From: Halichondria panicea
Lineage: Eukaryota > Porifera > Demospongiae > Suberitida > Halichondriidae
Length of the DNA: 64,000 nt
Reading direction: 5' to 3'
Assembly: GCF_963675165.1 (NCBI RefSeq)
Contig: NC_087381.1
Location: 5,209,378 to 5,273,377 of the forward strand
Both the position numbers and the translations under genes were made by a program. Shown here piece by piece: positions 37,254-64,000 of the stretch. Numbering within the stretch: the stretch's first letter is position 1; each line of letters begins with the position of its first letter. The notes under the pieces are model-generated. The model had not been told where the DNA came from and ran no database searches. It saw nothing but the letters and a program-made list of their open reading frames with translations.

Positions 37254-37440
37254 ACTTCAGCCATACTGATGCCATACTACTGTGCCAGTATCTAGATAGT
37301 GGCACAGTTCACGGCTTGACTTGTACCATATAGCAGATATTGGCACTTCAGCCATACTGATGCCATACTACTGTGCCAGTATCTAGATAGTGGCACAGTT
37401 CACGGCTTGACCTGTGCCATATGGCAGATATTGGCACAGT
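37254..37440 (+). repeat. 91-bp tandem duplication
   Basis: Two nearly identical units beginning ACTTCAGCCATACTGATGCC. Each contains a hairpin CTGTGCCAGTATCTAGATAG... with GTGGCACAG. Confidence 0.85.
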
Positions 37441-40862: not shown

Positions 40863-41305
40863 TCAGAGTGTGCCCCCGTACACAGGACAAGGACCCACGT
40901 CAAAACTGTACTGTTTGCTCCCATTATTCACCACAGGGAGTCCTACCTCGTCATACTCCGAGTCCGCAGTTGCCTCTGGCACTTTATTGAGAGGAAAATT
41001 GCTCATGTTCGTTTCTTCACTGTTCACATTCCTGATGCTGTATAGAAAAAATTATTAACGCATATAATGTGTAAATAACAGCTAGCGCTATCATGCATGC
41101 ATTGACCGACTAAAGAGTACGTTAAGTTGTTACTATATCTTTCGTAATTATACGAAATTATTGAATCAGTGGGAGGGAATGTTTGGTACCTTGTCCCTTT
41201 AAAAGAGTTCTGAGCGATAGGAATTTTGTTTCAATGTTTCTTGGTGGCTATCACAACAGCTAAAAATACAAACATCACAAAAATGATAATACTTGTAGCT
41301 ATCAC

Positions 41306-41899
41306 CAGGAGCACGTTACAGAAGGCGCGTCTTACCTCGGGAATCGCATCTCATGGAAGTTTGCAAAGCATGACCTTATATGCAAAACTACTAAGTGGGT
41401 CTGCGGGCGAGTGCTAATTGAGCTGACGATGCACTTTTACAGAGCATAGGTCAATAAAAGTGAAAAGTTACAGCTAGCTAGCTAGATATAGGCCTGGTAG
41501 TAAGCTCTCTCTTCTAACAACCCCAGTAAGACTCCCTACTGCAAAAACAAAACGCCTAGTATGTGTTAGTCTAAGTCTAGCAAACTTTCTCTGTACAAAG
41601 TGACTGGATATGCTCCCATTTTAGAACTTTCTGTACCTTACCGATGACAGCCTCTTCCATGATGTATACCAACATCCATCAAAGATCTAGCTATTCATTT
41701 TAGCTCTTTCTGGCTCAACCTAGCTCTCCTGCTGCTGCATTACATACAAAATCTGTTTATAATGATATTCACAGGCTGACCGCGGTCTGTACTTTATGTA
41801 CTGCACACTTTTCTTGGCAATGCCGCGTTTAGGAAAGCACACGAGATGCGATTTCCGAACCCATGCACAGTTAGACGCTCCTTCTGTAATGTGCTCCTG
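41306..41899. mobile_element. 594-bp element with CAGGAGC ends inside receptor A membrane segment
   Basis: Inverted ends CAGGAGCACGTTACAGAAGG and its counterpart. CTATCAC at 41299-41305 and 41900-41906. Excision in silico joins ENTVGSVIA to TSIIIFVMFVFLAVVIATKK, one continuous membrane helix. The second copy of the family is at 43528. Confidence 0.8.
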
Positions 41900-43527
41900 C
41901 TATCACAGAGCCCACAGTGTTTTCCATATCGACTTGTACTGGGCACTCCAAACTATCGAAGTCAGCAATAACTGCAAGTTGAATTGAGGTTAAGATTAAA
42001 ATTCTGAATAATCACAATTGAAGTGGAATGAATCCATTTCTCTATAATTTATACTCAAGCACTTCTGATGTGGACAGATCACTTGAGCTCAACAATGTTG
42101 CCCTGTATGTCACATGCTGTGGAGAATCAGCACAGCATTTCAGAAATGCGTTAAACAAGAAAGTTGAGTTTAAACGACAATTACAAGAAGCAATGACACC
42201 TTGCACAAGTGTGGTAGTGATGTCATCAGTTTTCTGAACCATTTCAGAGGCAGTGTACTGACTGCAATCACGTACACCACCAAAACGGAGTTGAATTATA
42301 AGACCTGAAGTTAAGATAATTGTACTTGAATTAATTAACGAGTATCATGAATCGATTCAGGTATTCTTATATGCATGCATGAGTAACATGCACAGTTGCA
42401 ATTGTTGCAACACTTCGTATAATTATGTATAACTAAAGTCCTCCGTATTCTCACCTTTACATGATAAATTTGGCAAACTCCATACACCAGCAGTGCCATT
42501 ATTATTGCTGCAGAGTCTCGTATAATTTCCAGAGAGACGGTAGCCAGTGTTACAGCTGTGTTGAGCTACTGTTCCTTCTAGTATGATGGAACTGCTTGGA
42601 AGGTAAGTAACCACTCCATTCACAAGAGTGAGAGGAGGACAAATTGCTGCATTAAAATTTAGTTATAGCTGACAAAACTATTAGCTACACACCTTTACAA
42701 GTTGGTACAGTGCTCCAACTTCCATCAGCCTCACAGGTCACTATGGATGATTCTGCCAGTTGATAACCAATGTTACAGCTGTAAAATGCAGCATCTCCAA
42801 ATGATGTACCAGCGAAAGTTCTGGACCCATTGGGAATTGTTGGAGGATTGTCGCAGGAGCCAGGCTGAGAAGCTACAGATGTGCATAAAAGCCATGTTAC
42901 GAACAGTTTTTTTTTTTTAACAAGTCGAAAACTATTGATTTTACAATAAAGGTACAGTATATAGATCGGTGTGCTATATACTTGGCGCTTTAATTGTAAC
43001 TTTGTATAGTTGCATTTTTAGTATGTGGGCATGGCGTATCTGTGTGTTATCGTTATAGTGTCTGCTAACCTCACAGTTCACTGTAGCTTGCCCGAGGGAT
43101 GATAACTATACCCTCGTTTAAAGCATCCATGAAATGAACTCTCATGATCGCCAAACATTACAAATTGGTCTGACTATATAATTATATATATATATATAAT
43201 AGTATTCGAACTTCGGCTAGCTTGACAAGTCATGCATGCACTGTAGCCGATCCTGAACTTTGGTAGCCAGTGTCACAGGTGTATAGGTCACTATTCCTCC
43301 TGCTATACTATGCTTGTTAGTGTACCAGGTGATCCATTGAAAATTAATGACGAGTCACAACTAGATCTATAGCTGTGATTTGTATGAATGATAGATTTTT
43401 TATGCTGTGTAAAGCAAATGATGCCACAAAATTGCTACAGTAGGCTATTAAATAGGGATAGTGGACAGTGACACCCTTTATTACACCTAATAAAAGTTAG
43501 TATACACACATACATAATTAGTATAAT

Positions 43528-43779
43528 CAGGAGCCCATAAGAGAAGGAACGGCTAACTTCAACGTATACTCGGGGATCACATCTCGTAATTGCCGGTGAA
43601 ACCGCACTTCCTTGTTTGGAAGCGACTAAGTGCTTGCAAACCGCAGCCCTGTATTGTGTATAACACGTGTAGGGATTCAACCACTTAAGTGACTCTGCAT
43701 AATTATATGGAAATGCGGTCATAACCACTTACGAAACGTGATCCCCGTAGTCAGCCGCTCCTTCTCTTATGGGCTCCTG
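43528..43779. mobile_element. 252-bp CAGGAGC-family MITE
   Basis: Ends CAGGAGCCCATAAGAGAAGG and its inverse; GTATAAT flanks both sides (43521-43527 and 43780-43786). Lies between CCP exons of receptor A. Confidence 0.8.
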
Positions 43780-44282
43780 GTATAATTTTTATAGCCTTTA
43801 TATAGAATGCATACCTAAACAAGTTGGCCTTGGGCTCCAATTTCCGCTATCTTGACAGACAACAGTAGCTGATCCCGACAGTTGATAGCCAGAGTTACAG
43901 CTGTACACCACAATCCCTCCTTGTATGATTCTAGTGGGTGTGCCAGGAGATCCATTTGAGATAGAAGGAGGGGAACTACAAATGGCTGCATGCAATTATT
44001 TTACTCAAATAAATTTTATTGCATACATTATTATAATTATTATACCTAAGCAGGTTGATAGAGTATCCCAATTTCCACTAGCCAGGCATAACACTGTAGC
44101 TGATCCTGATAATTGGTACCCTGTGTTACAGGTGTAGGGTGCCATATCCCCATATGTAGTGCCGGTGAAAGTCCTGGACCCATTGGGAATGGTCGGAGGG
44201 TCACCACAGGAAACAGCTATACAAAATAATGTAGAAGGTTTAATTAGTATAGTTAATGCTGTAGCAAAAATTACAATCTTAC

Positions 44283-47200
44283 GTGGGCAAGTCGGTCTAG
44301 TATTCCAACTTCCGCTAGCCTCACAGTTCACTGTAGCTGATCCTGACAGTACGTAACCAGTATTACAGCTGTACGTCCCCGTTCCTCCAAATGTTGTACT
44401 TGTTGGTGTACCAGGTGATCCATTGGAAATAGAGGGAAGAGACCCACAGGAGACGACTATTATAATGGAAAGGCAGTGCATTTTAATCTGACAACTAGCT
44501 ACTCATTGCTCACTTTCACAAGTTGGTCTAGTACTCCAACCTCCGCTAGCCTCACAGGTCACTGTAGCTGATCCTGACAGTATGTAACCAGTATTACAGC
44601 TGTACGTCCCTGTCCCTCCAAATGTTGTACTTGTTGGTGTACCAGGTGATCCATTGGAAATAGAGGGAAGAGACCCACAGGAGACGACTATTATAATGGA
44701 AAGGCAGTGCATTTTAATCTGACAACTAGCTACTCATTGCTCACTTTCACAAGTTGGTCTAGTACTCCAACCTCCGCTAGCCTCACAGGTCACTGTAGCT
44801 GATCCTGACAGTACGTAACCAGTATTACAGCTGTACGTCCCTGTCCCTCCAAATGTTGTCTTTGTTGGTGTATCAGGTGACCCATTGGAAATAGAGGGAA
44901 GGGGCCCACAGGAAATGACTAAAATATATTATAAGAGGCAATGCATTTCAATATGTTACAGTCTCGATCCATACTCATTGCTCACTTTCACAAGTCGGTC
45001 TAGTACTCCAACCTCCGCTAGCCTCACAGGTCACTGTAGCTGATCCTGACAGTACGTAACCAATATTACAGCTGTACGTCCCTGTCCCTCCAAATGATGT
45101 ACTTGTTGGTGTATCATGTGACCCATTGAAAATAGAGGGAAGGGGCCCACAGGAGATGACTAAGATGCAATGCATTTCAATATGTTACAATCTCGATCCA
45201 TAGTCATCACTCACCATCACAAGTTGGTCTAGTACTCCAACCTCCACTAGCCTCACAGGTCACTGTAGCTGATCCTGACAGTACGTAACCAGTATTACAG
45301 CTGTACGTCCCTGTCCCTCCAAATGTTGTACTTGTTGGTGTATCAGGTGACCCATTGGAAATAGAAGGAAGAGACCCACAGGAGACGACTATTATAATGG
45401 AATGTTGTGCATTTTAATCTGACAACTAGCTATATATACTTATTGCTCACTTTCACAAGTTGGTCTAGTACTCCAACCTCCGCTAGCCTCACAGGTCACT
45501 GTAGCTGATCCTGACAGTACGTAACCAGTATTACAGCTGTACGTCCCTGTCCCTCCAAATGTTGTCTTTGTTGGTGTATCAGGTGACCCATTGGAAATAG
45601 AGGGAAGGGGCCCACAGGAAATGACTAAAATAATTATATTATAAGAGGCAATGCATTTCAATATGTTACAGTCTCCTAGCTACTCATTGCTCACCTTCAC
45701 AAGTCGGTCTAGTACTCCAACCTCCGCTAGCCTCACAGTTCACTGTAGCTGATCCTGACAGTACGTAACCAATATTACAGCTGTACGTCCCTGTCCCTCC
45801 AAATGATGTACTTGTTGGTGTATCAGGTGACCCATTGGAAATAGAGGGAAGGGGCCCACAGGAGATGACTAAGATGCAATGCATTTCAATATGTTACAAT
45901 CTCGATCCATAGACATCGCTCACCATCACAAGTTGGTCTAGTACTCCAACCTCCGCTAGCCTCACAGTTCACTGTAGCTGATCCTGACAGTACGTAACCA
46001 GTACTACAGCTGTACGTCCCTGTCCCTCCAAATGTTGTACTTGTTGGTGTATCAGGTGACCCATTGGAAATAGAAGGAAGAGACCCACAGGAGACGACTA
46101 TTATAATGGAAAGGTGGTGCATTTTAATCTGACAACTAGCTATATATACTCATTGCTCACTTTCACAAGTTGGTCTAGTACTCCAACCTCCGCTAGCCTC
46201 ACAGGTCACTGTAGCTGATCCTGAGAGTACGTAACCAGTATTACAGCTGTATGTCACTGTTCCTCCAAATGTTGTACTTGTTGGAGTACCAGGTGACCCA
46301 TTGGAAATAGAGGGAAGAGACCCACAGGATACGACTATAATAATAGAAAGGCGGTGCATTATAATCTAACAATCAAAGTCTCCTAGCTACTCATTGCTCA
46401 CTTTCACAAGTTGGTCTAGTACTCCAACCTCCGCTAGCCTCACAGTTCACTGTAGCTGATCCTGACAGTACGTAACCAGTATTACAGCTGTACGTCCCTG
46501 TCCCTCCAAATGTTGTACTTGTTGGTGTATCAGGTGACCCATTGGAAATAGAAGGAAGAGACCCACAGGAGACGACTATTATAATGGAATGTTGTGCATT
46601 TTAATCTGACAACTAGCTATATATACTCTTTGCTCACTTTCACAAGTTGGTCTAGTACTCCAACCTCCGCTAGCCTCACAGGTCACTGTAGCTGATCCTG
46701 ACAGTATGTAACCAGTATTACAGCTGTACGTCCCTGTCCCTCCAAATGTTGTACTTGTTGGTGTACCAGGTGACCCATTGGAAATAGAGGGAAGGGGCCC
46801 ACAGGAGATGACTAAGATGCAATGCATTTCAATATGTTACAATCTCGATCCATATTCATCGCTCACCATCACAAGACGGTCTAGTACTCCAACCTCCGCT
46901 AGCCTCACAGGTCACTGTAGCTGATCCTGACAGTATGTAACCAGTATTACAGCTGTACGTCCCTGTCCCTCCAAATGTTGTACTTGTTGGGGTATCAGGT
47001 GACCCATTGGAAATAGAGGGAAGGGGCCCACAGGAGATAACTAAGATGCAGTGCATTTCAATCTCGATCCATATTCATCGCTCACCTTCACAAGTTGGTC
47101 TAGTACTCCAACCTCCGCTAGCCTCACAGGTCACTGTAGCTGATCCTGACAGTACGTAACCAGTATTACAGCTGTACGTCCCTGTTCCTTCAAATGTTGT

Positions 47201-49392
47201 ACTTGTTGGAGTACCTGGTGACCCATTGGAAATAGAGGGAAGAGACCCGCAGGATACGACTATTATAATGGAAAGGCGGTGCATTATAATCTGTCTCCTA
47301 GCTACTCATTGCTCACTTTCACAAGTTGGTCTAGTACTCCAACCTCCGCTAGCCTCACAGTTCACTGTAACTGATCCTGACAGTACATAGCCAGTATTAC
47401 AGCTGTACGTCACTGTCCCTCCAAATGTTGTACTTGTTGGTGTACCAGGTGACCCATTGGAAATAGAGGGAAGAGACCCACAGGAGATGACTAAGATGCA
47501 ATGCATTTCAATATGTTACAATCTCGATCCATAGTCATCACTCACCATCACAAGTTGGTGTAGTACTCCAACCTCCGCTAGCCTCACAGGTCACTGTAGC
47601 TGATCCTGACAGTACGTAACCAGTATTACAGCTGTACGTCACTGTCCCTCCAAATGTTGTACTTGTTGGTGTATCAGGTGACCCATTGGAAATAGAAGGA
47701 AGAGACCCACAGGAGACGACTATTATAATGGAAAGTTGGTGTATTTTAATCTGACAACTAGCTATATATACTCATTGCTCACTTTCACAAGTTGGTCTAG
47801 TACTCCAACCTCCGCTAGCCTCACAGGTCACTGTAGCTGATCCTGAGAGTACGTAACCAGTATTACAGCTGTATGTCACTGTTCCTCCAAATGTTGTACT
47901 TGTTGGAGTACCAGGTGACCCATTGGAAATAGAGGGAAGAGACCCACAGGATACGACTATAATAATAGAAAGGCGGTGCATTATAATCTGACAATCAAAG
48001 TCTCCTAGCTACTCATTGCTCACTTTCACAAGTTGGTCTAGTACTCCAACCTCCGCTAGCCTCACAGTTTACTGTAGCTGATCCTGACAGTACGTAACCA
48101 GTATTACAGCTGTACGTCCCTGTCCCTCCAAATGTTGTACTTGTTGGTGTATCAGGTGACCCATTGGAAATAGAAGGAAGAGACCCACAGGAGACGACTA
48201 TTATAATGGAAAGGTGGTGCATTTTAATCTGACAACTAGCTATATATACTCATTGCTCACTTTCACAAGTTGGTCTAGTACTCCAACCTCCGCTAGCCTC
48301 ACAGGTCACTGTAGCTGATCCTGAGAGTACGTAACCAGTATTACAGCTGTATGTCACTGTTCCTCCAAATGTTGTACTTGTTGGAGTACCAGGTGACCCA
48401 TTGGAAATAGAGGGAAGAGACCCACAGGATACGACTATAATAATAGAAAGGCGGTGCATTATAATCTGACAATCAAAGTCTCCTAGCTACTCATTGCTCA
48501 CTTTCACAAGTTGGTCTAGTACTCCAACCTCCGCTAGCCTCACAGTTTACTGTAGCTGATCCTGACAGTACGTAACCAGTATTACAGCTGTACGTCCCTG
48601 TCCCTCCAAATGTTGTACTTGTTGGTGTATCAGGTGACCCATTGGAAATAGAAGGAAGAGACCCACAGGAGACGACTATTATAATGGAATGTTGTGCATT
48701 TTAATCTGACAACTAGCTATATATACTCTTTGCTCACTTTCACAAGTTGGTCTAGTACTCCAACCTCCGCTAGCCTCACAGGTCACTGTAGCTGATCCTG
48801 ACAGTACGTAACCAGTATTACAACTGTATGTCACTGTCCCTCCAAATGTTGTACTTGTTGGAGTACCAGGTGACCCATTGGAAATAGAAGGAAGAGACCC
48901 ACAGGAGACGACTGTTATAATGGGCGAAATAGGTTTGAATCTGATACAGTCTCGATCCATAGTCATTGCTCACTGTCACAAGTTGGTCTAGTACTCCAAC
49001 CTCCGCTAGCCTCACAGGTCACTGTAGCTGATCCTGACAGTACGTATCCAGTATTACAGCTGTATGTCACTGTTCCTCCAAATGTTGTACTTGTTGGAGT
49101 ATCAGGTGACCCATTGGAAATAGAGGGAAGAGACTCACAGGAGACGACTATTATAATGGAAAGGCGGTGGATTTTAATCTGACAATTAAAGTCTCCTAGC
49201 TACTCATTGCATGCTCACTTTCACAAGTCGGTCTAGTACTCCAACCTCCGCTAGCCTCACAGGTCACTGTAGCTGATCCTGACAGTACGTAACCAGTATT
49301 ACAACTGTATGTCACTGTCCCTCCAACAGTTGTACTTGTTGGTGTATCAGGTGACCCATTGGAAATAGATGGAGGAGAGTTACAATTCACAG
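44283..49392 (-). repeat. Homogenised array of 22 CCP exons, period about 237 bp
   Basis: Each unit is a 174-bp phase 1-1 exon (57 codons plus split codon) and a 55-75-bp intron. Exon ranges (low-high): 44283-44456, 44514-44687, 44745-44918, 44986-45159, 45215-45388, 45451-45624, 45695-45868, 45924-46097, 46161-46334, 46402-46575, 46638-46811, 46867-47040, 47086-47259, 47317-47490, 47546-47719, 47783-47956, 48024-48197, 48261-48434, 48502-48675, 48738-48911, 48974-49147, 49219-49392. Introns are as similar as exons. The units at 46161, 47783 and 48261 encode identical proteins. Confidence 0.9.
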
Positions 49393-49555
49393 CTATAATA
49401 ATTATACGTAAACCCCAGTTATATTGATTATAGTATGCATGCCTATAGTAATTACCTATACATGTAGGTACGGAGATCCAGAAAACAAGATCAATTTCTT
49501 CCATTTCACAAATAGCTGTGGCAGATCCCAACAGTTGGTACCCAGGGTTGCATCT

Positions 49556-50595
49556 TTTTTTTTTTTTTTTTTTTTTTTTTATGAAAGATTTAGCAATTAA
49601 TTGCAAGGATACACAAATAGCTACAAAGCTAGGGTGAAGTGAGTCCTATAACATACGCTTTAATAGTTACAACATGTCAACTAGATGTGAATACAGATGA
49701 GACTTAAATGAACTTATACTAGTACAGTCTACTAAAGTAAAGTCCTTGTGGCTAACCAGCCTATTCCATATTGTGATTGCATGCGGAAAAAATGAGAATT
49801 TGTAAAAGGATGTTCTACATTGGTAGGGGACCAGAGTAAAACAGTTAACAGTTCTACTACTGTACGTCATATTTCTCTTGGTTGCTGGGTTGTTTGGGAA
49901 GTCAGTTAGATTGTGTAGTATTTTGAAAAGGTGGCAAAGCACCGCAGCAAGGCGCCTCAGCTGCAGAGAAGGAAGCCTGGTCAAGGTGAGTAATTCTTCA
50001 CTTTTCAAATTCCATTTCTTCAGACAGACTCTCATAGCAAATCTCTGGACTTTTTCTAAATTGTTTATTTCACACTTGTGAAATGGGTTCCATACAGAGG
50101 ATGCGTATTCCAGATGTGGTCTCACGAACGATGTATACAACTTTAACAGTGTTGTTGGAGAAGAATTCTCAGAGAACCTGCGATGTAGGAGACCTATCAA
50201 CTTCCTTGTTTTATTACAAATCGTATTGATGTGAGTGTGCCAGCTCAAGTCAGCCGATATGGTAATTCCTAAATACTTGTAGTTAGAAACCTGCTGCAGT
50301 ACATAACCATTTAGAAGTAGAGTTGGAGCCTTCAATGAGCGCGATGTTTTCTTAGAAACGGACATAAACTTACACTTGCCAAGATTAAATTCTAATAATT
50401 TAGTGTTCAAAAAATTTGAGACTTTAGAAATGTCCTTTTGAAGATTCACGTAGTCATTAGTAGATGTGATAACTCTATATAAGGCCATGTCATCAGCAAA
50501 CATATTTAGCTTACTGTCTTGAGAAATAACATCTGTGACTTGGTTTATGTACGTAATGAACAATAGTGGACCCAAAACCGAACCTTGGGGCACAC
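49556..50595 (-). mobile_element. 5'-truncated LINE with reverse-transcriptase remnant
   Basis: The minus frame reads GVPQGSVLGPLLFITYIN, FADDMALY (the catalytic xADD box) and a long thumb/C-terminal part ending SHLVDML at about 49670, then a poly-A of about 26. Resembles jockey/CR1-type non-LTR elements. The 5' end starts within the RT domain, so it cannot move on its own. AGATG duplicated at 50596-50600 and 49551-49555. It lies inside the first CCP exon of receptor A. Confidence 0.9.
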
Positions 50596-51339
50596 CATCT
50601 GTACGTTGCTGAATAGGACATAGTTGAAGAGACAAAGCCATTTTCAATAGCAGGTGGTGTTGAGCAGCTGGATGGAGAAGGACCTAAAACTGGACATGTG
50701 GTGCATAAACGATCGATAATTGTCATTGAAATAGACTGGCTAGATTAATATTATAGCTACACTGATATGATACCTTCAACAATACAGAGAAGAAAGATGA
50801 AGGCTTTGTTCGCTTGGTACATGCAGTAAATCATTTTAGAAACAGTAACGGATCTATACTTGATTGTAACTGAAACCCTTGACTATTATTATAGGCTAAA
50901 CCATATACAATTCAGATCTACTGTAGTACAAATGAGCACCTATATATACACATGTACATGATTTATTCACTAGTTGTATGTGGAAACCATGTATATAGAT
51001 TTGTTTATTGTTTAGAATACCTTGTTTCTAGAGGAATTTTGTTTTGTAATGTGTTTTGGCAGCAATCACAACAGTATCAATCATCTGTTCAGTACCACAA
51101 AGTTTATCACACCCGTAATAGATTTAAATGCGTACCGGACGGTATTATATCCATGGATTGACTGACTAGATTGTGTGACAGGGATGGTTCATGCATACAT
51201 GATTAAAATGGACTCAGTATTGAAGTCCAGGTGGAACCTACCTCCGACGTGGATTGGTGATACGAATGGACTTCGAGTGATGGAAATTTTGCTTTTACCA
51301 TGTAAGAGATAGATCTATTGATAACTACAGCAATAAAAT

Positions 51340-51545
51340 AAAACAACGGGCAACTAAATAACAATAATTGTAGCAATTACAAATCCCATAATAACAGCAG
51401 TGTTTTTCTTGGCTGACAAAAGAGGTTGTTGTACAGGGTATTCCAGTCAGCAATAACTGTTGGACAGGTTGCATCCCGGTTGAGACGAAGATTCTGAATG
51501 ATCACAGTCAAAGCGGAACGACTCAGCAAAGTGTTTCGTAGACAA
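51340..51545 (-). pseudogene. Relic of a CCP-receptor juxtamembrane/membrane region
   Basis: Minus strand reads VIIQNLRLNRDATCPTVIAD, then after a frame change NTAVIMGFVIATIIVI, matching receptor B 53692-53560. No CCP exons attached. Confidence 0.7.
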
Positions 51546-51787: not shown

Positions 51788-52560
51788 ATTTGTTTATTGT
51801 TTAGAATACCTTGTTTCTAGAGGAATTTTGTGTTTGATGTGTTTTGGAAGCAACCACAACAATAGTAAACAAGTACCCAAAAAATAGACCATAATAATAA
51901 GCACGATTTACCTTGCACGAAAAATTTTTCTGGGATATTGCAGGTAAATCTATACCAGCATATTTGTCGGGTGTGACAAGGATGATTAATTAACAGAACT
52001 CCCCTGAGTGCATGATAGGAATGTTGCATGCTTAGATTTACCACAGTGTCAACCAGCAGTACATAATAAACCTATAATTGCATGCATGTAGCTTTCACAG
52101 ATCCCATACTAACAGCAGCTAGTGTTATCCATAGCTAATGAAGGAGGTTGTTGTACTGAACATTTCAGACTATTAAAGTCAGCAATAACTGCATGTAGAT
52201 CTAGTTGGACAGGACAGGTTGCATGCATTGAGGTTGAAATGAAGATTCTGAATGATCACAGTCTTATAGTTGTGAATTTGAATTTGAAATCCAAAGACAT
52301 GCACGTGCTATAGGAGGGAAGTATATAAGAACGATACCAGTACATACCAATAGGAGCTTGATTGAACGGCACAACAGACTATGTAAGAATGTGCATCTAG
52401 TGAGTATTTACATCTTAGTCACAATAGTGTGATTCAGTCATTGTTCCATTTTATTTGAGGTGTGTGTCATGATCAAGTCTTCAGCGTCTGCCCGTATGCA
52501 GGACAAAGGACTCATGTCAAAGACGTATACACCACAAGTAGTACATGAGGTAGATCGCTA
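51788..52560 (-). pseudogene. Scattered relics of receptor tail exons
   Basis: 51788-51860 keeps the post-membrane exon (TIVVVASKTHQTQNSSRNK then a GT). 52100-52270 keeps the CPT...ADFN and Gln-Asn-Leu region. 52480-52560 is a decayed tail exon. The same post-membrane relic occurs at about 50998-51075 and 60778-60830. Confidence 0.6.
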
Positions 52561-53161: not shown

Positions 53162-53299
53162 TCAAGGTGATCTTTTCTTCAAAGTCGTTTGTCCGTACGC
53201 AGGACAAGGATCCACGTCAAAGCTGTACTGATTCTTGCCATCCTTCACCACAGGAGGTCCTACCTCATCATACTCTGGGTATGCTGTTGCCTCAGGCAC
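53162..53299 (-). pseudogene. Conserved receptor tail segment stranded after the gene B stop
   Basis: In frame directly after the TAA of receptor B the sequence continues VPEATAYPEYDEVGPPVV, QYSFDVDPCPAYG and stops at 53162-53164. It is 1:1 alignable with the coding tail of receptor A. The YDEV context looks like a tyrosine signalling site, by inference. Confidence 0.6.
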
Positions 53300-56200
53300 T
53301 TAATACTCCGTAGAGAGTGAGGGGATACCCACATGGGGGCGAGGGATGGTTGGGAAATTAGTTCCGGTAGTGTTCAGATTTCTGTTACTGCTGCATTTTA
53401 GAACAAAAATGAATGTTCATTGTTTTAAAGCTCTGTGTATAATTATTACTATGTTATGAAATACCTTGTCGTTTCTAAAGAGTCCCGGTTATTGGCAGTT
53501 TTGCTTCGACGTCTCTTGATGAGAACAAAAACAACAAACAGAACGAACATAAAAATAACAATAGCCATTACAGAGCTTGTAATAACAGCAATGTTATCCA
53601 AAACGGACAAAGGGTCTTGTACTGGGCATTCCAAGCTATCGAAGTCAGCAATAACTGTTGGACAAGTTGAATTGAGGTTAAGATTAAGATTCTGAATAAT
53701 CACACTTGAAGTGGAATGAATCCATTTCTCTATAATTATACTCAAGCACTTTTGATGTGGACAGATCACTTGAGCTCAACAATGTTGCTCTGTATGTCAC
53801 ATGTTGTGAAGAATCAGCAAAGCATTTCAGAAACGCGTTAAACAAGAAAGTTGAGTTTAAACGACAATTACAAGAAGCAATGACACCTTGCACAAGTGTG
53901 GCAGTGATGTCATCAGTTTTCTGAACCATTTCAGAGGCAATGTACTGACTGCAATTACGTACACCACCAAAACGGAGTTGAATTATGATACCTAAAGTTC
54001 ATAATTGTGAAATTAATCAACGAATTAATTCAGGTGTTCTTATGTGCATGTGTAACACAGTTGCTATTTCGTATTCTCACCTCTACATGATAAATTTGGC
54101 AAACTCCAAACACCAGCAGTGCCATTATTATTGCTGCAGAGTCTCGTACCGTTTCCAGAGAGACGGTAGCCAGTGTTACAGCTGTGTTGAGCTACTGTTC
54201 CTTCTAGTATGACGGAACTGCTTGGAAGGTAAGCAACCACTCCATTCACAAGAGTGAGAGGAGGACAAATTGCTGCATTGAAATTAATAGCAACTGACAG
54301 AACTATGAGCTATACATACACACCTTTACAAGTTGGTCTAGTACTCCAACTTCCACTAGCCTGACAGGTCACTGTAGCTGATCCTAAACGTTGATATCCA
54401 CTGTTACAGGTGTAAAATGCCGACTCTCCAAATGATGTACCAACGAAAGTCCTGAATCCATTGGGAATGGTCGGAGGATTGTCACAAGAGCCAGGCTGAG
54501 GAGCTAATGTAACAGATGTGCAAAAAGCAATTGCATGCATGTATTTTATTATGTATGATACAAGTCGAAACAAAAACTAAATGGAATTTACAATAAAGAT
54601 GTATAGATGTATAGATGTACATAAAAGTGATGAACTGAAAACTATAGCTGTTTATAGAAAGCTTGTGAAGCTGAGGAATCAACATAGTTTTAAAGCAAGA
54701 AAACTCTATATCATTACAACCAATACAACTTGGTCTTACTACTCCAACTTCCACTAGCTTGACATGTCACCTGACACTTGGAATACTCAGAAACTGCCAC
54801 CTACGCCTGGAACACTGTGTTACAGAAGTAGGTGGCGATTTCTCCAAAGGATGTACCTTAGTTAAAAGTCAAACCGCCCATTGTCACTGTAAAGAAGATG
54901 GAGCTGTGTAGTTTTCACAGAAAGTACCAACATAATTCTCTTGGATGGGCGCTTGCACGGTTCAGTAGCCACATAATAAAATATCCGCCCACCCCTTGTT
55001 TAGCCTAAATGAAGCTATCAAAACAAGTGGCCGGTTCGACGGTTAACTACGGAATATACCAGTGGATGTCCAAAATAAAGGTTGGAGGGTTGCACAGGAG
55101 ACAGCTGTTATACAGATCAAGGATCATGTTTGTTATTCTTCTCAGAAAAGTTATTACGCGATGTACTATGAATGTGTCAATTGAAAACTGAACTTTCAAT
55201 AACAAACAAGCAAGATGATTGCATGGGTCTTTGATTCGTACCAGCTCTACTTAAGATAATATATACTGCTCACCATTACAGCTTGGTATTGTACTCCAAC
55301 TTCCGCTAGCCTGGCACATTACTGCAGCTGATCCTGAACGTTGATAGCCATTGTCACAGATGTAGGTGGCCGTCTCCCCAATTGTTGTATCAGTGAAAGT
55401 CCTGGACCCATTGAGAATAATGGGAGGGTTGCCACAGGAGACAGCTACGGATGTAGAGACATACACATGAAATCAGGCCACTTGTATATAAGGTTTGATT
55501 GCTTCTATTATTTAGTATATATACGTGGGCAAGTTGGTCTTGCACTCCAACTTCCACTAGCTTGACAGGTCACTGTAGATGATCCTGACAGTTGATAGCC
55601 ATCGTCACAGGTGTATGTGGCCGTATCCTCAAATATCGTACCAGTAAAGGTCCTGGACCCATTGGGAATGGTCGGAGGGCTACCACAGGGGATAGCTATA
55701 CAGATGTACAGACATAATTATATATACACATGAGATCAGATCATTAATTTTGTATAGAATTATTATGTGGGCAAGTCGGTGCAGTACTCCAACTTCCACT
55801 AGCCTGACAGATCATTGTAGCTGCTCCTGACAGTTGGTACCCAGTGTTACAGGTGTAGATGGCCGTATCTCCAAATGTGGTGCCAGTGAAAGTCCTGGAC
55901 CCATTGGGAATGGTCGGAGGGTTGCCACAAGAGATAGCTACAGAATTATGCACGTACACACTAGCTCATGCATATAACTATAAAAGTATTAAAATCATTA
56001 ACGTGCACAATTTGGTGATTTTGGTGCATTTAAGAATCTTACGTGAGCAACTTGGTCTTGCAGTCCAACTTCCATTAGCCTGACAGGTCACTGTGGGTGA
56101 TCCGGACAGTTGGTAGCCATTGTTACAGGTGTATGTCACTGTTCCTCCTGCTACTGTGCTTGTTGGTATACCAGGTGACCCGTTGGAAATTGATGGTGGG

Positions 56201-59200
56201 GAGCCACAAATAGCTGTGATTACGATGAAAGAAGTGTACAGTTATTATAGCTTACAGCAGAATGCATACACATAATGAGCATGTAACGTAGATATACCTA
56301 AACAATTTGGCCTCGGGCTCCAATTTCCGCTATCTTGACAGACAACAGTAGCTGATCCCGACAGTTGATAGCCAGAGTTACAGCTGTACACCACAGTCCC
56401 TCCTTGTATGATACTAGTGGGTGTGCCAGGAGATCCATTTGAGATAGAAGGAGGGGATCCACAAACAGCTGCAATGAGTGATTAACACATTTTTATTAAA
56501 CAGAGAGTTCATTAGGAAGAGTATATACTCTATTAGCCTCGGTTCTTCCAGGCCGATTTTTTTTAATAGAGAGAAGTTGTAGGCGACCTAGCGTTCAATT
56601 GGAGACAGATCGGCCTGGGGTCGAGGCTAATACTCTATTAGAAAGAGTACTCAAATAGACTGTACATGCACAGGTCGCATTCTGCCAGACCTACGTCACA
56701 ATTAAAGTACATAATTTATACTCTTGTAACCATGCACATGCAGCCAATTGAGATACAATTGAACAATGCTGATGGAATGAAAGTACTGCGGGTGCTGATG
56801 CCTCGGTGGAGGTGCCAAAGCTACATAACATAAAGCTACTATAGCTAGCTTTTATACACACATTGATTATAATTATAATTATCATGATGAACATTTTTAA
56901 TTTTGCTGCATGTAGAATCCACAGGGAAACTCAAAGAGTGAGTAATGATCGACGATGATTGTTGTTAATAACGATCGACACCAAAAGTTCAAGTCTAATG
57001 GTGGCTGCAAGTACGTCAGCAGAGCCTTGCAGCTCTCTTCTCACTCTTGCAGCTGCTATCAATAGCTAACGTTCTAGTGCAGAGCTAACTACTAAGTAGA
57101 GTAGCAACACTCGGTGAACAAGTTTTGCTATGGACTCTTCTGAAAAGCTGCAATGTGCATTCCAAGTAAGTAAAACTAGCCATAACTCGAGAACGAAGCT
57201 TTATTTTGCAAATCCACAAATACCAAGCCAAGAAAACATGACTAGAAGCCTATAGAAACTCTTACTTTCACTTCATTGATCCTTGTGAGCAGCTGAAACA
57301 GTCTACACACACACACACACACACACACAGACACACAAACACACTATGCCCGTATACCGTATACCTATACCTTGCTTGCGCATGCGCACCGAGGCATAAT
57401 AACATTAATGATAATCATCACTCATGCATGCATTGAAAATTTCCTAATTCACATGCAGTTTATGGTTGTGACGTAGGTTGGACAGAACGCCTACATGTAC
57501 TGGGGTTTTAAGTGGAGTTGCATACTCTTCCTAATGAACTCTTGATACCTAAGCATATTGGTGTAGTACTCCAACTTACACTAGCCTGACAGGTCACTGT
57601 AGCGGATCCTAAACGTTGGTAGCCATTGTTACAGGTGTATGTCACTGTTCCTCCTGCTACTGTGCTTGTTGGTGTACCAGGTGACCCGTTGGAAATTGAT
57701 GGTGGGGAGCCACAATTAGACTACATTACATCATCTGTAATTGATCTGATTGGCTAAAAACAGTAGATTACATGGAAGCATAATCTACAAGAAGGTACTT
57801 ATTCTACAGGAAATGGGCGCATATTCTACAGGAAGTGGACACATATTCTACAGGAAATGGACACATATTCTACAGGAAGTGACAAATAATTTGCAGGAAG
57901 TTCTCAAAAGTTGAAATGAAATTTTTAGTGAAAGTGACAAGAAGATGACAAAAACATTATAAAAACACAGAATGCAATAGTTTGTTCAGTCAATATCCAT
58001 TCTTTCCATGTCCACTGTTGCTTTGTATTGCTTTTTCCAGTTGGGCATGGGCAAGGGGGGCCAGGAAGCATCAAAAACACTTTAGCAGTCGCTTGACACT
58101 TTCTATTGAGTTTTTTAAGGTTCCATGCCGGTCCAGTCTGCTCTATACCCCCTCCACTCCACCACAGAGCTTCATTCTTCTTCTTGTAGTGTTACAGTCA
58201 GTTCTAGCATAGTTTTAGGTTCTTTTTACTTGTCTGTTCTTTCCAGTATCTTCAAGAAGCGTTTCACAAGCTTTACTAAGTTTTTTCATTGTTTTGAAGC
58301 CGTCTTCTTATCTTTTTCTGTCAACTGGTGTCTCTCACAGCTCTCCAGCTCGCACAAATTCAATTTCTGTTGCTACGCACCAAACCTGGCTTTTTATAAC
58401 CACGCCTCGCGCATGCGCAATGAAGTCCAAGTTAGATAGACCACACCCACTTGTAGAATATGCGTCTTAGTAACCGCCTTGGTTACGGTTAGATTCCCTC
58501 GGCTTTGCGCCTCGGGCTAACCGCAACCGCGGAGGTTACATAGACGCATATTCTACTCTTAGGTGTAGTCTATCCTATACATAGCTGTGATTACGATGAC
58601 AGAAGTGTACAGTTATTATAGCTTACAGCAGAATGCATACACATAATGAGCATGTAACGTAGATATACCTAAACAATTTGGCCTCGGGCTCCAATTTCTG
58701 CTATCTTGACAGACCACAGTAGCTAATCCCGACAGTTGATAGCCAGAGTTACAACTGTACATCACAGTCCCTCCTTGTATGATGCTAGTGGGTGTGCCAG
58801 GAGATCCATTTGAGATAGAAGGAGGGGATCCACAGATGGCTGCAATGAGCGATTAACACATTTTTATTAAATAGAGAGTTCATTAGGAAGAGTATAATAA
58901 TACTCTATTAGAAAAAGAGTCCTCAAATAGACTGTACATGCACACGTCGCATTCTGCCAGACCTACGTCACAATTAAAGTACATAATTTATACTCTTGTA
59001 ACCATGCACATGCAGCCAATTGAGATACAATCGAACAATGCTGATGGAATAACATTAATGATAATCATCACTCATACAAGTCTCATTATTTATGCTTTTT
59101 ATGCAACTGCAAATTGTGTTAATAAATTAACAAAAGCATGAAAAATCGCTCTGTGTTAGACTAGCTAAATATAATTATATAGGCCAAGCCAACTTATAAC

Positions 59201-60555
59201 ATGTTTCACGGACTTTCATTAGCAATTTATAGACCAGCCAGGCCTGTAATATATACCTTATTATTACGGGTAATTTTAGCATTTTCAGATTTTTCTCTGT
59301 TTTTAGGATACTATTTTTGGCGGATTTGTAGCAAATACATTACCACAGTATTAGTAAAAAATGTAAAGTACGAGTTTTTAAATTAAATGGAAAGTTTGGA
59401 GTCAGATACAGATGAAAAAAAGGGCTAGCTTGCTTAGCATACTCTCAAAAGTACATTACATTATACAAAAGTACATTAGAAAAAAAGAAAAACAAATGTA
59501 TTTACTTTTTTTTAATGAGATTCAATTGCGTTATTATTATAGCGCGTACTTAATTTAGCGTTAATTACAAATTCGCTAAAATTAGTACCAGTTTATAATA
59601 AGGTATAATCGTGAACTCATTAAAAATGAAGGGAAAGTGGGTGTTTTGAGAAATTGTTAGGCTTCCCAAACCACTGGTAATTTGTGGTCACAAATAAGCC
59701 TTATAAGGGTATGAAGTGGGTGGTTGTGGGATTTTTTAGATTTTCAAAAAGAGACTCGCTGCATTCTGTGATGCATGTAATTAAGTTGGCTTGGCCCTGT
59801 AGCTACTTTACGACAATCAGGATTCATTTCCAAATTATACTCACTATCAGGGGGCACTTGTTTAAGTGTTTAGAGAGACGCATGGTCATAGGGCTCAATA
59901 AGTTTCCCGGGGTAGAAAGCGAAACACGGATTATTTCTGAGCTACACATAGACTAATCCATTTTAGAAGCATCACGTGAACCACTTCCATTGCCAATCCC
60001 TCTCAACTCTATCTATGGTGTGATAGCAGGAGTTACAAATCTTACGTTGACAAGTTGGTATAGTGCTCCAACTTCCACTGGCTTGACATGTAACAGTGGA
60101 TGATCCTGACAGTACGTAACCAGTATTACAGCTGTACGTCCCTGTCCCTCCAAATGTTGTCTTTGTTGGAGTACCAGGTGACCCATTGGAAATAGAGGGA
60201 GAGGGACCACAATCCACTATTATTTACATAATTTATATACACCACAATTAATTGTAGCATCCATACTTACCTATTATACATGTGGGTATAGAGTCCCAGT
60301 AAAATAAATCAAATTCTTCCATTTCACAAATTGCTGTGCGGAATCCTGACAGTCGGTACCCTGTGTTGCAGCTGTACGTTGCTGAGAAGGACGTACTTGA
60401 AGAGACGTAGCCATTTTGAATAGTAGGCGGTGTTATGCAGCTGAATGTAGGAGGACCTAAAACTGGACATAAAATGTATAGATGAACGGTAATTGCCATT
60501 ATTAAAAACAGACTGGCTACTGATTGACACCTTCAACAATGCAGAGAAGAAACAT
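53300..60555 (-). CDS. CCP/sushi-repeat type I receptor B
   Basis: Signal exon 60555-60531 (MFLLCIVE, short because a TAA lies upstream in frame), then CCP exons 60462-60271, 60216-60046, 58839-58669, 57719-57549, 56468-56298, 56213-56043, 55937-55767, 55695-55525, 55444-55274, 54503-54324, 54272-54081; juxtamembrane exon from 53991 (CNCRLNSTFLFNAFLKC, HVTYRATLLSSSDLS); membrane helix IAVITSSVMAIVIFMFVLFV followed by KRRRSK; last exon 53390-53300 ending SLSTEY, TAA. CCP exons are 171-192 bp, phase 1-1. Between DLSTSK and the membrane part the frame changes; a 58-bp GT-AG intron (53749-53692) would restore it, otherwise it is a one-base indel. The exon ending at 57549 lost its acceptor to an insertion, and the one ending at 55767 has AT for the donor GT; both could be skipped without frame loss. 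Predicted cell-surface binding protein. Confidence 0.7.
54733..54890 (-). pseudogene. Decayed CCP exon in receptor B
   Basis: Retains the SGSW-type end and a Cys/Tyr pattern around CNTVFQA..., but the cysteine spacing and frame are broken by a rearranged segment. Confidence 0.5.
56535..56629. mobile_element. 95-bp TAGCCTCG-family element, 10-bp duplication
   Basis: AGCCTCGGTTCTTCCAGGCC to GGTCGAGGCTA, flanked by ATACTCTATT on both sides (56525-56534 and 56630-56639). Copy 2 at about 58897-58910 shows the unoccupied site. Confidence 0.85.
56779..57397. mobile_element. 619-bp TGCCTCGGTG-family element, 3-bp AAT duplication
   Basis: Copy 2 reads GCTGATGGAATAACATT across the site; copy 1 has the element between GGAAT and AATAACATT. 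It contains a (CA)n tract at about 57303-57345. Confidence 0.8.
57717..58577. mobile_element. About 860-bp insertion with TAGACTACA ends
   Basis: Sits exactly at the acceptor of the CCP exon ending at 57549. Copy 1 (56205-56225) shows GAGCCACAAATAGCTGTG uninterrupted. Ends TAGACTACA / TGTAGTCTA. Contains a 22-bp minisatellite and an inverted GGTTACGGTTAG / CTAACCGCAACC block near the right end. Confidence 0.75.
57801..57890 (+). repeat. 22-bp minisatellite, 4 units
   Basis: Unit ATTCTACAGGAAATGGACAC plus AT, with A/G and G/A alternates. Confidence 0.85.
59255..59606. mobile_element. Inverted-repeat element with ATACCTTATTA ends
   Basis: Ends ATACCTTATTAT / ATAATAAGGTAT; the interior has AATTTTAGC / GCTAAAATT pairs and T-rich runs. 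Confidence 0.6.
59610..60045. other. Intron sequence of receptor B
   Basis: No exon or repeat recognised; the plus frame at 59684-59956 has no support. Confidence 0.4.
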
Positions 60556-62884: not shown

Positions 62885-64000
62885 CTACATAGAATCACGA
62901 ATTTTGCTTTGATACTTCTTGAAGGCAATCACAACAACAAAGACAACAACCAGCAACACAATGACAGTCGCCATGGCAGCGCCCACAATAATAGTAGTGA
63001 AATCAATCGTATCTGGTGTATGGGTGTTCAAGTGTGAAACCACATGTAATTCTACGAGAACCAGTTCCTCATTTTTTGGGTCCAATTATCCCCCTCATAC
63101 AAATCAATGGTATTATTACCCTGTCAAAAGTGAGCTCATAACTTCCACTTGTAACTAGTACGTCATTTGGCAGTTGGGATGAGGAGAGAGTTACTTCACA
63201 CCTGTATTCTGCCTCATAGCTAGGATAAAGTTAAGCTTTCAAAACTCAAAGTAGATAAACTTGAATTTGAAATCAGCTGCTCATCATTTTTAGCCATTTG
63301 AAAATGAATGATGGCTGAAATATCTCGGCTTCATGCACAGAGTATGGCATGGCATGTCTCTTGCTATCAATCACTGCCCTTTGTGATGGACTACAAGCTA
63401 GTAGGTAGGATCAACACTACCGGCCCTTGTCGACAGGTGTGTTGTTTTTGCAAATCTCTCTGCTTTTGTTTTTTGGTTCCTAATCACGCCCATGCAGATA
63501 CAATCAATACCAGGCCTAGTTGGCGGCCTAGCTAGAAACAACGAGGCTGGAAACGAGGCTAATAATTATCATGCATATTAATTTTAGAATTGGGTTTTAT
63601 TAATTTTGGAGGTTAGCTAAGTTGTTCATAGGTAGACCTGTGAAAAATCAGCTTGTTCCACACATACGTTCTCATCTGGCAGCTGTCTGATTATACATTC
63701 TGTCTTATGCGATAGGTAAGAACTACAAATCTTACATGGGCAAGTTGGTAACCTAACAAGTCACAGTGGATGATCCTGAATGTTGGTAACCAGTGTTACA
63801 AGTGTAGGTGGCCATATCCCCACTGAAATGTCGTACCAGTGAAGGTCCTGGACCCATTGGGGATTGGTAGAGGGTCACCACAGGAGACAGCTACAGATTT
63901 AGAGACATAAAAGTAGCAATTAAGGTACACTTGTAAGACTTGATTGCTTCTATTTAGCTAGCTTAATGTATTTACAGTAGATCTAACTTTAGTGAATTGC
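62885..64000 (-). pseudogene. 3' end of a third CCP receptor (C), partial
   Basis: Membrane exon 62891-63060: DTIDFTTIIVGAAMATVIVL, VVVFVVVIAFKKYQSKIRDS, then a GT near 62886. Upstream, 63746-63890 is a CCP exon reading VSCGDPLPIPNGSRTFTGTT that then loses frame by a small insertion and lacks its C-terminal third. A TAGCCTCG-family fragment lies at 63500-63562. The gene continues past the window, so its status cannot be decided; the visible CCP exon is dead. Confidence 0.55.

What the first reader, a model, noticed from the sequence alone, without database searches (positions are those of the whole stretch)
44283..49392. 22 near-identical CCP exons with higher-order repeats
Exons and introns are equally similar, some units encode identical proteins, and a two-unit block of about 478 bp and a larger offset of 2,100 bp recur. 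This is recent unequal exchange or conversion. Because each exon is phase 1-1, copy-number change alters protein length by 58 residues without frame loss, as in polymorphic recognition receptors.
Basis: partly seen in the sequence, partly recalled or inferred. Interest (0 to 1): 0.7.

Follow-up and report, generated by a model that had tools for sequence, protein, structure and literature searches.

The report
Homogenised 22-exon sushi-domain array
An animal-type surface-receptor gene carries 22 nearly identical sushi-domain exons where its neighbouring sister gene has one, and recombination inside the exons appears to keep them alike; this is a well-marked case of a known process, in a gene copy that now looks damaged by transposons.

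Summary
The array is real: 22 sushi/CCP exons on the minus strand (44283-49392), each 174 bp, phase 1-1, introns 45-71 bp. The 478 and 2,100 bp copies are real (469 bp exact; 702 bp with 2 mismatches). "Exons and introns equally similar" is only partly right. Introns form two main lineages plus one outlier (p 0.07 within, 0.185 between), yet exon silent divergence (about 0.10) is much the same whichever lineage flanks the exon. Linkage decays inside the exon; mainly its edges track the adjoining intron. So exons behave as one recombining pool between older intron types. Simple simulations favour unequal exchange plus exon-internal conversion over exchange alone.

A tandem paralogue (about 53-62 kb) has one exon of this type at the same position; the array coalesced after the genes split (pS 0.11 within, 0.30 between). 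Exons show no indels and pN/pS 0.39, so they diversified under coding constraint. But the array gene has a LINE in its first sushi exon and a TIR element in its inferred transmembrane exon: possibly a recent pseudogene or secreted form. Copy-number polymorphism and recognition could not be tested. New member of a known kind.

The parts
44283..49392 (-). array of 22 sushi exons (U1 = 49219-49392 ... U22 = 44283-44456, numbered in gene order) with 21 internal introns
49219..49392 (-). U1, edge unit, most diverged (11 singleton sites)
48974..49147 (-). U2
48738..48911 (-). U3 (same protein as U5, U7, U14)
48502..48675 (-). U4 (same protein as U6, U13)
48261..48434 (-). U5
48024..48197 (-). U6
47783..47956 (-). 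U7
47546..47719 (-). U8
47317..47490 (-). U9
47086..47259 (-). U10
46867..47040 (-). U11
46638..46811 (-). U12
46402..46575 (-). U13
46161..46334 (-). U14
45924..46097 (-). U15
45695..45868 (-). U16
45451..45624 (-). U17 (same protein as U20)
45215..45388 (-). U18
44986..45159 (-). U19
44745..44918 (-). U20
44514..44687 (-). U21
44283..44456 (-). U22, edge unit (7 singleton sites)
47743..48689 (-). two-unit block repeated at 478 bp offset: 47743-48211 equals 48221-48689 exactly (469 bp); its ends lie in introns
46005..46706 (-). 702 bp block (about three unit lengths) equal to 48105-48806 (offset 2,100) with 2 mismatches; both ends lie inside exons (U15 and U12)
50774..50834 (-). likely signal-peptide exon of the array gene, ending phase 1 at a GT
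   Evidence: start and splice site inferred
50596..50689 (-). 5' part of the first sushi exon (E), cut by the LINE
   Evidence: acceptor inferred
49555..50599 (-). LINE fragment, apparently 5'-truncated, with RVT_1 match and a 26-base A tail, inserted in exon E; 4-5 bp target-site duplication read by eye
49456..49554 (-). 3' part of sushi exon E
44046..44216 (-). C-type sushi exon downstream of the array
43815..43985 (-). B-type sushi exon; pS 0.037 to copy 56298 and 0.113 to copy 58669 in the paralogue, although its upstream intron hardly aligns to that of 56298
42694..42860 (-). C'-type sushi exon
42455..42646 (-). D-type sushi exon, last sushi before the membrane
42055..42303 (-). conserved open exon, membrane-proximal (SEA-like by recall only)
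41306..41899 (-). 594 bp TIR element (CAGGAGC...GCTCCTG, 7 bp target-site duplication) splitting the inferred transmembrane exon
40863..41037 (-). cytoplasmic tail exon, open, with three tyrosines in the conserved part
   Evidence: acceptor inferred
60046..60216 (-). single exon of the array type in the neighbouring paralogue, directly after its exon E
60278..60442 (-). uninterrupted exon E of the neighbouring paralogue
53186..54491 (-). 3' end of the neighbouring paralogue: C', D, membrane-proximal exon, hydrophobic transmembrane-like segment (about 53574), tail

Best explanation
One sushi exon of a tandemly duplicated, ancestrally membrane-anchored multi-sushi receptor gene was amplified in one gene copy to 22 units after that copy split from its neighbour. 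Unequal exchange changed the unit number in whole-unit steps (recent blocks of about two and three units). Recombination inside the exons, most likely including short-tract conversion, keeps the exons alike while the short introns stay as older, distinct types, because homology is longest and best in the exons (the reason is inferred). Each step is frame-neutral (phase 1-1). The likely product is a long chain of near-equivalent sushi modules, adding length or valency rather than sequence diversity, as in CR1; this last step is inferred. In this haplotype the gene has since taken insertions in its first sushi exon and in its inferred transmembrane exon, so it may be a recent pseudogene or a secreted form.
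For: Single-copy counterpart at the same position in the paralogue. Array pS 0.108 versus array-to-counterpart pS 0.298 and paralogue baseline 0.288 (C') and 0.404 (tail). The two end units are most diverged (permutation p 0.00045; two at each end, p 0.016). LD inside the exon falls from r2 0.29 (<20 bp) to 0.05 (130 bp or more), permutation p 0.00015; 77 of 120 site pairs show all four combinations, Rmin 10; transversions alone, 7 of 15 pairs, Rmin 4. Upstream intron class has r2 1.0 with exon site 3 and 0.8 with sites 15 and 17; downstream intron class 0.8 with site 174; all other values are 0.31 or less. Exon pS hardly depends on intron class (exon after it 0.091 v 0.108, exon before it 0.103 v 0.104). 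Adjacent intron classes are independent (r2 0.015, p 0.54). At matched diversity, exchange alone meets the observed four-gamete and long-range LD values together in 0 to 2.2% of kept runs over eight settings; 90% exon conversion in 35 and 37%. Constraint: 22 exons of one length, 21 introns of eight lengths; pN/pS 0.39.
Against: No population or read data: copy-number change today is not shown, and assembly error in unit number cannot be excluded. The simulations are simplified (uniform mutation, one array, no selection, guessed step size and tract length, 19-22 informative sites on average against 16 observed), so crossover and conversion are not cleanly separated; with 50% conversion 9% of kept runs match and with 70%, 15-17%. 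The 469 bp block ends in introns, and the D to membrane-proximal exchange between the two genes includes introns (p 0.09-0.11 with gaps), so exchange is not confined to exons. Distance along the array predicts exon difference over all units (r 0.30, p 0.001) but not clearly among the 20 interior units (r 0.13, p 0.067), so neighbour-biased exchange is weakly shown. The excess of intron over silent exon divergence is modest (0.009-0.064) and could partly be constraint on silent sites. The lesions argue against a working receptor in this haplotype.
Confidence: 0.72

Rival explanations
1. Unequal crossing-over alone, without conversion, made and homogenised the array; chimaeric exons are crossover junctions.
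For: Multi-unit blocks at 478 and 2,100 bp and diverged end units are what unequal exchange gives; it also makes within-exon linkage decay.
Against: At matched diversity it yields mean four-gamete fractions of 0.28-0.41 against 0.64 observed, and meets both statistics in 0 to 2.2% of kept runs over eight settings. Outside the array a B-type exon has pS 0.037 to copy 56298 in the other gene against a 0.29-0.40 baseline (Fisher p 0.005 against C', counts rounded to whole numbers), while its upstream intron hardly aligns; its pS to the second copy, 58669, is 0.113.
Confidence: 0.17
2. A polymorphic recognition receptor whose repeat number or unit mix is under diversifying selection.
For: Frame-neutral units and recent block copies; sushi domains occur in fester and FcoR allorecognition proteins (PMC12065747, passages seen); the paralogue has a signal-peptide-like exon, a hydrophobic transmembrane-like segment and a tail.
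Against: pN/pS 0.39 and nine units sharing three proteins show sameness, not diversification; the array gene carries a LINE in its first sushi exon and a TIR element in its inferred transmembrane exon; no variation data.
Confidence: 0.08
3. The array gene is already a pseudogene and the array is now neutral satellite-like DNA (not exclusive of the best explanation, which concerns how the array arose).
For: Exon E is split by a LINE and the inferred transmembrane exon by a TIR element; at the border of the transmembrane exon the array gene lacks five bases that the paralogue has (read by eye).
Against: No stop or indel in 22 exons (3,828 bp) while 21 introns show eight lengths; pN/pS 0.39; all 21 internal introns keep GT and AG. 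So any loss is recent relative to array diversification. If exon E is phase 1-1, as inferred, it could be skipped in frame.
Confidence: 0.3
4. Assembly artefact: a shorter or longer array mis-joined.
For: Exact 469 bp and near-exact 702 bp repeats can mislead short-read assembly.
Against: There are 16 distinct sequences among 21 introns and 18 among 22 exons, so most units could be placed; end units diverge as in real arrays.
Confidence: 0.1

Closest known systems
Human complement receptor 1 (CR1) long homologous repeats
   Same: Membrane protein of many sushi/SCR modules with a higher-order repeat (30 SCRs, 1-28 in groups of seven; PMC10605242, passages seen); CR1 ranks first by whole-sequence score among solved structures for one array unit, though single-module scores are modest and CR2's best module scores slightly higher.
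   Different: CR1 repeats seven different SCRs as a block; here one exon type is repeated, with recent blocks of about two and three units. Size polymorphism of CR1 is recalled, not read here.
LPA kringle IV type 2 copy-number repeat
   Same: Near-identical domain-coding units in tandem, whole-unit copy differences, several unit subtypes (PMC6314250, passages seen; 1-40 units of 5.6 kb, start of the abstract of PMC11462820 in a search listing).
   Different: Kringle domain, two exons per 5.6 kb unit; the paper says that KIV-2B variants are carried as one linked haplotype, whereas here exon-body and intron variants are nearly unlinked.
Argiope MaSp2 silk genes
   Same: Repeated exons separated by small introns of one or two types; exchange between clustered paralogues (PMC9779670, passages seen).
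   Different: There introns are strongly homogenised (average 97.6%) and in some genes alternate together with the exons; here introns are in older classes and exons form one pool. The authors knew of no other gene with two alternating homogenised intron types; here alternation is only partial (introns 3-7 and 12-14, by eye).
Tenascin-X repeats
   Same: Concerted evolution within a repeat gene (title of Hughes 1999 seen in the reference list of PMC9779670; that the repeats are fibronectin type III is recalled).
   Different: By its title exons and introns both evolve in concert; the paper was not read.
Botryllus fester / FcoR
   Same: Sushi-bearing transmembrane proteins with signal sequence, in a clustered gene family (PMC12065747, passages seen).
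   Different: One sushi domain with Ig domains; the passages place diversity in alleles, gene content and splicing, not in a sushi exon array.

Membership tests
Sushi/CCP/SCR domain (PF00084) | match to the curated model above its cut-off | tested here: met
   2 of the 22 array units were scanned: 47.1 and 37.5 bits against 20.7; paralogue exon 43.1 bits
Sushi/CCP/SCR domain (PF00084) | four cysteines, conserved Trp, one module per exon | tested here: met
   22 of 22 units fit the four-cysteine pattern as one exon; in an alignment of 14 window exons (10 of the array) C3, C30, C44, W50 are invariant and C56 nearly so
Tandem exon array under concerted evolution | units more alike within the array than to the outside counterpart | tested here: met
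   pS 0.108 within against 0.298 to the single-copy counterpart
Tandem exon array under concerted evolution | edge units least homogenised | tested here: met
   U1 and U22, permutation p 0.00045
Tandem exon array under concerted evolution | recombination between units | tested here: met
   LD decay p 0.00015, four-gamete 77 of 120 pairs, Rmin 10; transversions only 7 of 15, Rmin 4
Tandem exon array under concerted evolution | nearby units more alike than distant ones | tested here: inconclusive
   all units r 0.30, p 0.001; interior units r 0.13, p 0.067
Copy-number polymorphic receptor (CR1 or LPA type) | unit number differs between individuals | not testable with these tools
   no reads or second haplotype; no genome held
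Polymorphic recognition receptor | diversifying selection in recognition units | tested here: not met
   among units: pN/pS 0.39, identical proteins; averages only, no site-by-site test; between individuals not testable
Type I transmembrane sushi receptor | signal peptide, ectodomain, uninterrupted transmembrane segment | tested here: not met
   by hydropathy and open frames the paralogue meets it; in the array gene the inferred transmembrane exon is split by a TIR element

The most novel reading that the evidence does not exclude
The short introns act as recombination insulators: their divergence steers exchange into the exons, so a pool of exons is continually reshuffled and homogenised while intron lineages persist, giving a protein whose length can evolve fast without its module sequence drifting, in a recognition or adhesion protein of an early-branching animal with copy-number alleles in the population.
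Probability: 0.12. Interest if true: 0.7.

Novelty: new member of a known kind. Interest (0 to 1): 0.42.

Why it matters
Arrays of near-identical domain exons are known, but this one comes with a single-copy sister exon beside it and with introns old enough to mark where recombination happens. The intron classes serve as markers and show that much of the exchange falls within the 174 bp exons. It is a compact system for measuring exon conversion against unequal exchange, and for asking whether module number varies between individuals in what looks like a sushi receptor of an invertebrate.

Tried and rejected
Equal exon and intron similarity was tested first with a multiple alignment, which exaggerated intron divergence (0.27), and then with pairwise alignments. 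The shuffled-intron control of that aligner gave mean p 0.28 (lowest 0.10), so values near 0.2 with many gaps carry little homology signal. Intron classes come from one clustering cut-off (0.22); intron 2 stands alone and was counted as not of the second class in the linkage tests.

A claim that B-type exons share no intron homology at all was dropped: the upstream intron of 43815 hardly aligns to that of 56298 (13 differences in 56 aligned with 8 gaps), but the downstream one looks partly related by eye, and the first 60 bases taken there already run into a 252 bp TIR element at 43528-43779.

Relatives elsewhere: none confirmed in viral contigs (48 pattern stretches); one 22-residue match at 64% in a Rickettsiales MAG contig out of 19 stretches, not followed up. 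No genome is held for this window, so genome-wide copies were not sought. No unit tree was built, because recombination makes a single tree misleading. The first simulation was not matched in diversity. In one search the exchange-only runs were shorter (600 events) than the conversion runs (1,500); one search repeated both kinds at 1,500 or 4,000 events, with the same outcome. In one search one of 15 comparison exons (C55772) was read out of frame; its figures are not used. An earlier count gave earlier borders and an 8 bp duplication for the 41.3-41.9 kb element; one search replaces them.

Papers: nine searches; two searches found nothing, and several listings were capped (20 of 172, 10 of 30, 6 of 21). 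None of the titles and abstract starts shown describes a sushi exon array of this kind in an invertebrate; the library holds open-licence papers only. Passages on sponge SRCR gene expansion (PMC10855680) were seen and not used.
Full report
OBSERVATION. A scan for phase 1-1 exons with a sushi cysteine pattern finds 22 in a row on the minus strand at 44283-49392. All 22 are 174 bp and open; the 21 introns between them are 45-71 bp, 19 starting GTGAGC and 2 GTGAGT, 20 ending TAG and 1 CAG. Tandem Repeats Finder sees the same array at periods 241 and 478. Two of the 22 units were scanned against Pfam and both hit Sushi PF00084; for one unit, complement receptor 1 ranks first among solved structures by whole-sequence score. 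Units are numbered in gene order, U1 at 49219-49392 to U22 at 44283-44456.

HIGHER-ORDER REPEATS. The exact runs of at least 180 bp in 44200-49460 are 469 bp at offset 478, 363 and 258 bp at offset 2,100, 247 at 1,622, 199 at 231, 191 at 706 and 181 at 1,187. The two runs at 2,100 form one 702 bp block with 2 mismatches, whose ends fall inside U12 and U15. The ends of the 469 bp copies fall in introns.

EXONS VERSUS INTRONS. Over 231 exon pairs mean pS is 0.108 and pN 0.042 (ratio 0.39), total p 0.063. Introns form two main classes: thirteen of one, seven of another (introns 8, 10, 11, 15, 16, 18, 19), and intron 2 apart. Within the first class two subtypes alternate in introns 3-7 and 12-14 (alignment, by eye). 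Same-class pairs (99) differ by 0.070 and different-class pairs (111) by 0.185, but the exon after the intron differs by pS 0.091 and 0.108, and the exon before it by 0.103 and 0.104. So the exon is nearly blind to the intron lineage beside it. For interior units intron p exceeds exon pS by 0.038 (bootstrap 0.009-0.064), a modest difference that constraint on silent sites could partly explain.

WHERE RECOMBINATION FALLS. Sixteen exon sites have a second state in three or more units. Their r2 falls with distance from 0.29 (<20 bp) to 0.15, 0.11, 0.07 and 0.05 (130 bp or more); shuffling site positions gives p 0.00015. Seventy-seven of 120 pairs show all four combinations; at least 10 exchanges are needed. 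With transversions only, 7 of 15 pairs and at least 4 exchanges remain, so repeat mutation at transition hot spots does not explain all of it. The class of the upstream intron is tied to exon sites 3 (r2 1.0), 15 and 17 (0.8); that of the downstream intron to site 174 (0.8) and weakly to 173 (0.31); the other values are 0.25 or less. Neighbouring introns are independent in class (r2 0.015, p 0.54). Much of the exchange therefore falls in the exon body. Against a simple neighbour-exchange picture, distance along the array is a clear predictor of exon difference only when the two end units are included (all units r 0.30, p 0.001; interior r 0.13, p 0.067).

MECHANISM TEST. A simple forward simulation of a 22-unit array was filtered for p 0.045-0.085 and at least eight informative sites, and compared with the observed four-gamete fraction (0.642 or more) and long-range r2 (0.065 or less at 90 bp or more). 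Unequal exchange alone: kept 158 of 360, 198 of 360, 130 of 240 and 197 of 360 runs, both criteria met in 0, 1.5, 0 and 0.5%; in longer runs kept 248, 243, 246 and 225 of 450 each, both met in 1, 2, 2 and 5 runs (0.4, 0.8, 0.8, 2.2%). With exon conversion at 50, 70 and 90% of events: 9.0% (67 of 160 kept), 14.9% (121 of 240) and 35.2% (105 of 240); longer runs at 70 and 90%: 36 of 210 kept (17.1%) and 78 of 210 (37.1%), each from 450 runs. The model is crude; I read it as favouring conversion in addition to exchange, not as proof.

CONTEXT: TWO TANDEM GENES. A profile built from the window's own exons finds further sushi exons on the same strand. At about 53-62 kb a paralogue has a signal-peptide-like exon (61852 downward), sushi exon E (60278-60442), then exactly one exon of the array type (60046-60216), then B, C, C' and D types, a conserved membrane-proximal exon, a hydrophobic segment near 53574 and a tail. 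The array gene keeps the same general plan: signal-peptide-like exon (50834 downward), E, 22 units, C, B, C', D, membrane-proximal exon, hydrophobic segment, tail; the number and order of B and C exons differ. The array units differ from the single-copy counterpart by 12-19%, pS 0.298, like exon C' (0.288) and the tail (0.404). So the array coalesced after the genes split. Other exons were exchanged between the genes later: B pS 0.037 to copy 56298 (0.113 to copy 58669), D 0.044, membrane-proximal 0.070 (Fisher, counts rounded, p 0.005 for B against C', 3e-6 for D plus membrane-proximal against C' plus tail). The D to membrane-proximal tract includes its introns (p 0.09-0.11 with gaps), so that exchange was not bounded by exons.

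CONSTRAINT AND DAMAGE. The 22 exons have one length and no stop; the 21 introns have eight lengths. With pN/pS 0.39 this shows coding constraint during much of the array's history. Each unit has one N-glycosylation sequon. But exon E is split by a LINE fragment with a reverse-transcriptase match (49555 to about 50599, A tail of 26), and the inferred transmembrane exon by a 594 bp TIR element at 41306-41899 with a 7 bp target-site duplication. If exon E is phase 1-1, as inferred, it could be skipped; the transmembrane lesion suggests a shortened or secreted product or a recent pseudogene. I did not try to mend either.

FUNCTION. Near-equal units, sequence constraint and frame-neutral steps fit a long multivalent or spacer ectodomain rather than a diversified recognition surface; this is inference. 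The short introns and animal-type domains point to a metazoan; a demosponge is my guess from recalled sequence style and was not tested.

KNOWN OR NEW. Tandem domain exons under concerted evolution are known: CR1 (PMC10605242, passages), LPA KIV-2 (PMC6314250, passages), Argiope silk genes (PMC9779670, passages), tenascin-X (title only). The combination here, one exon pool across older intron classes with a single-copy sister exon next door, contrasts with the silk case, where introns are homogenised. I place it as a new member of a known kind.

Noticed in passing
window 43528-43779 and 41306-41899: Two TIR elements with the same terminal sequence (CAGGAGC) and 7 bp target-site duplications, one in an intron, one in the inferred transmembrane exon of the array gene.
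   Followed up: partly
window 53186-53350: By eye the paralogue's tail exon seems to meet a stop before the conserved tyrosine-rich stretch that is open in the array gene; its tail may be truncated or spliced differently.
   Followed up: no
window 62920-63888: Broken sushi exon pieces and a further hydrophobic stretch upstream suggest a third, degenerate paralogue in the cluster.
   Followed up: no
window 51445-51524 and 52151-52199: Short partial copies of the region next to the transmembrane exon lie between the two genes, hinting at lost gene copies.
   Followed up: no
window 56250-58900: B-type sushi exons 56298 and 58669 and their immediate flanks are near-identical apart from an insertion in one upstream flank, a further recent duplication within the paralogue.
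   Followed up: partly
window 10253-11689: 478-codon open frame, minus strand, that recalls the HSP70/HSPA12 actin-like ATPase fold by motif; Pfam and solved-structure search gave no match.
   Followed up: partly
window 37254-37437: Two tandem copies of a 91 bp unit, 96% matching, not examined.
   Followed up: no
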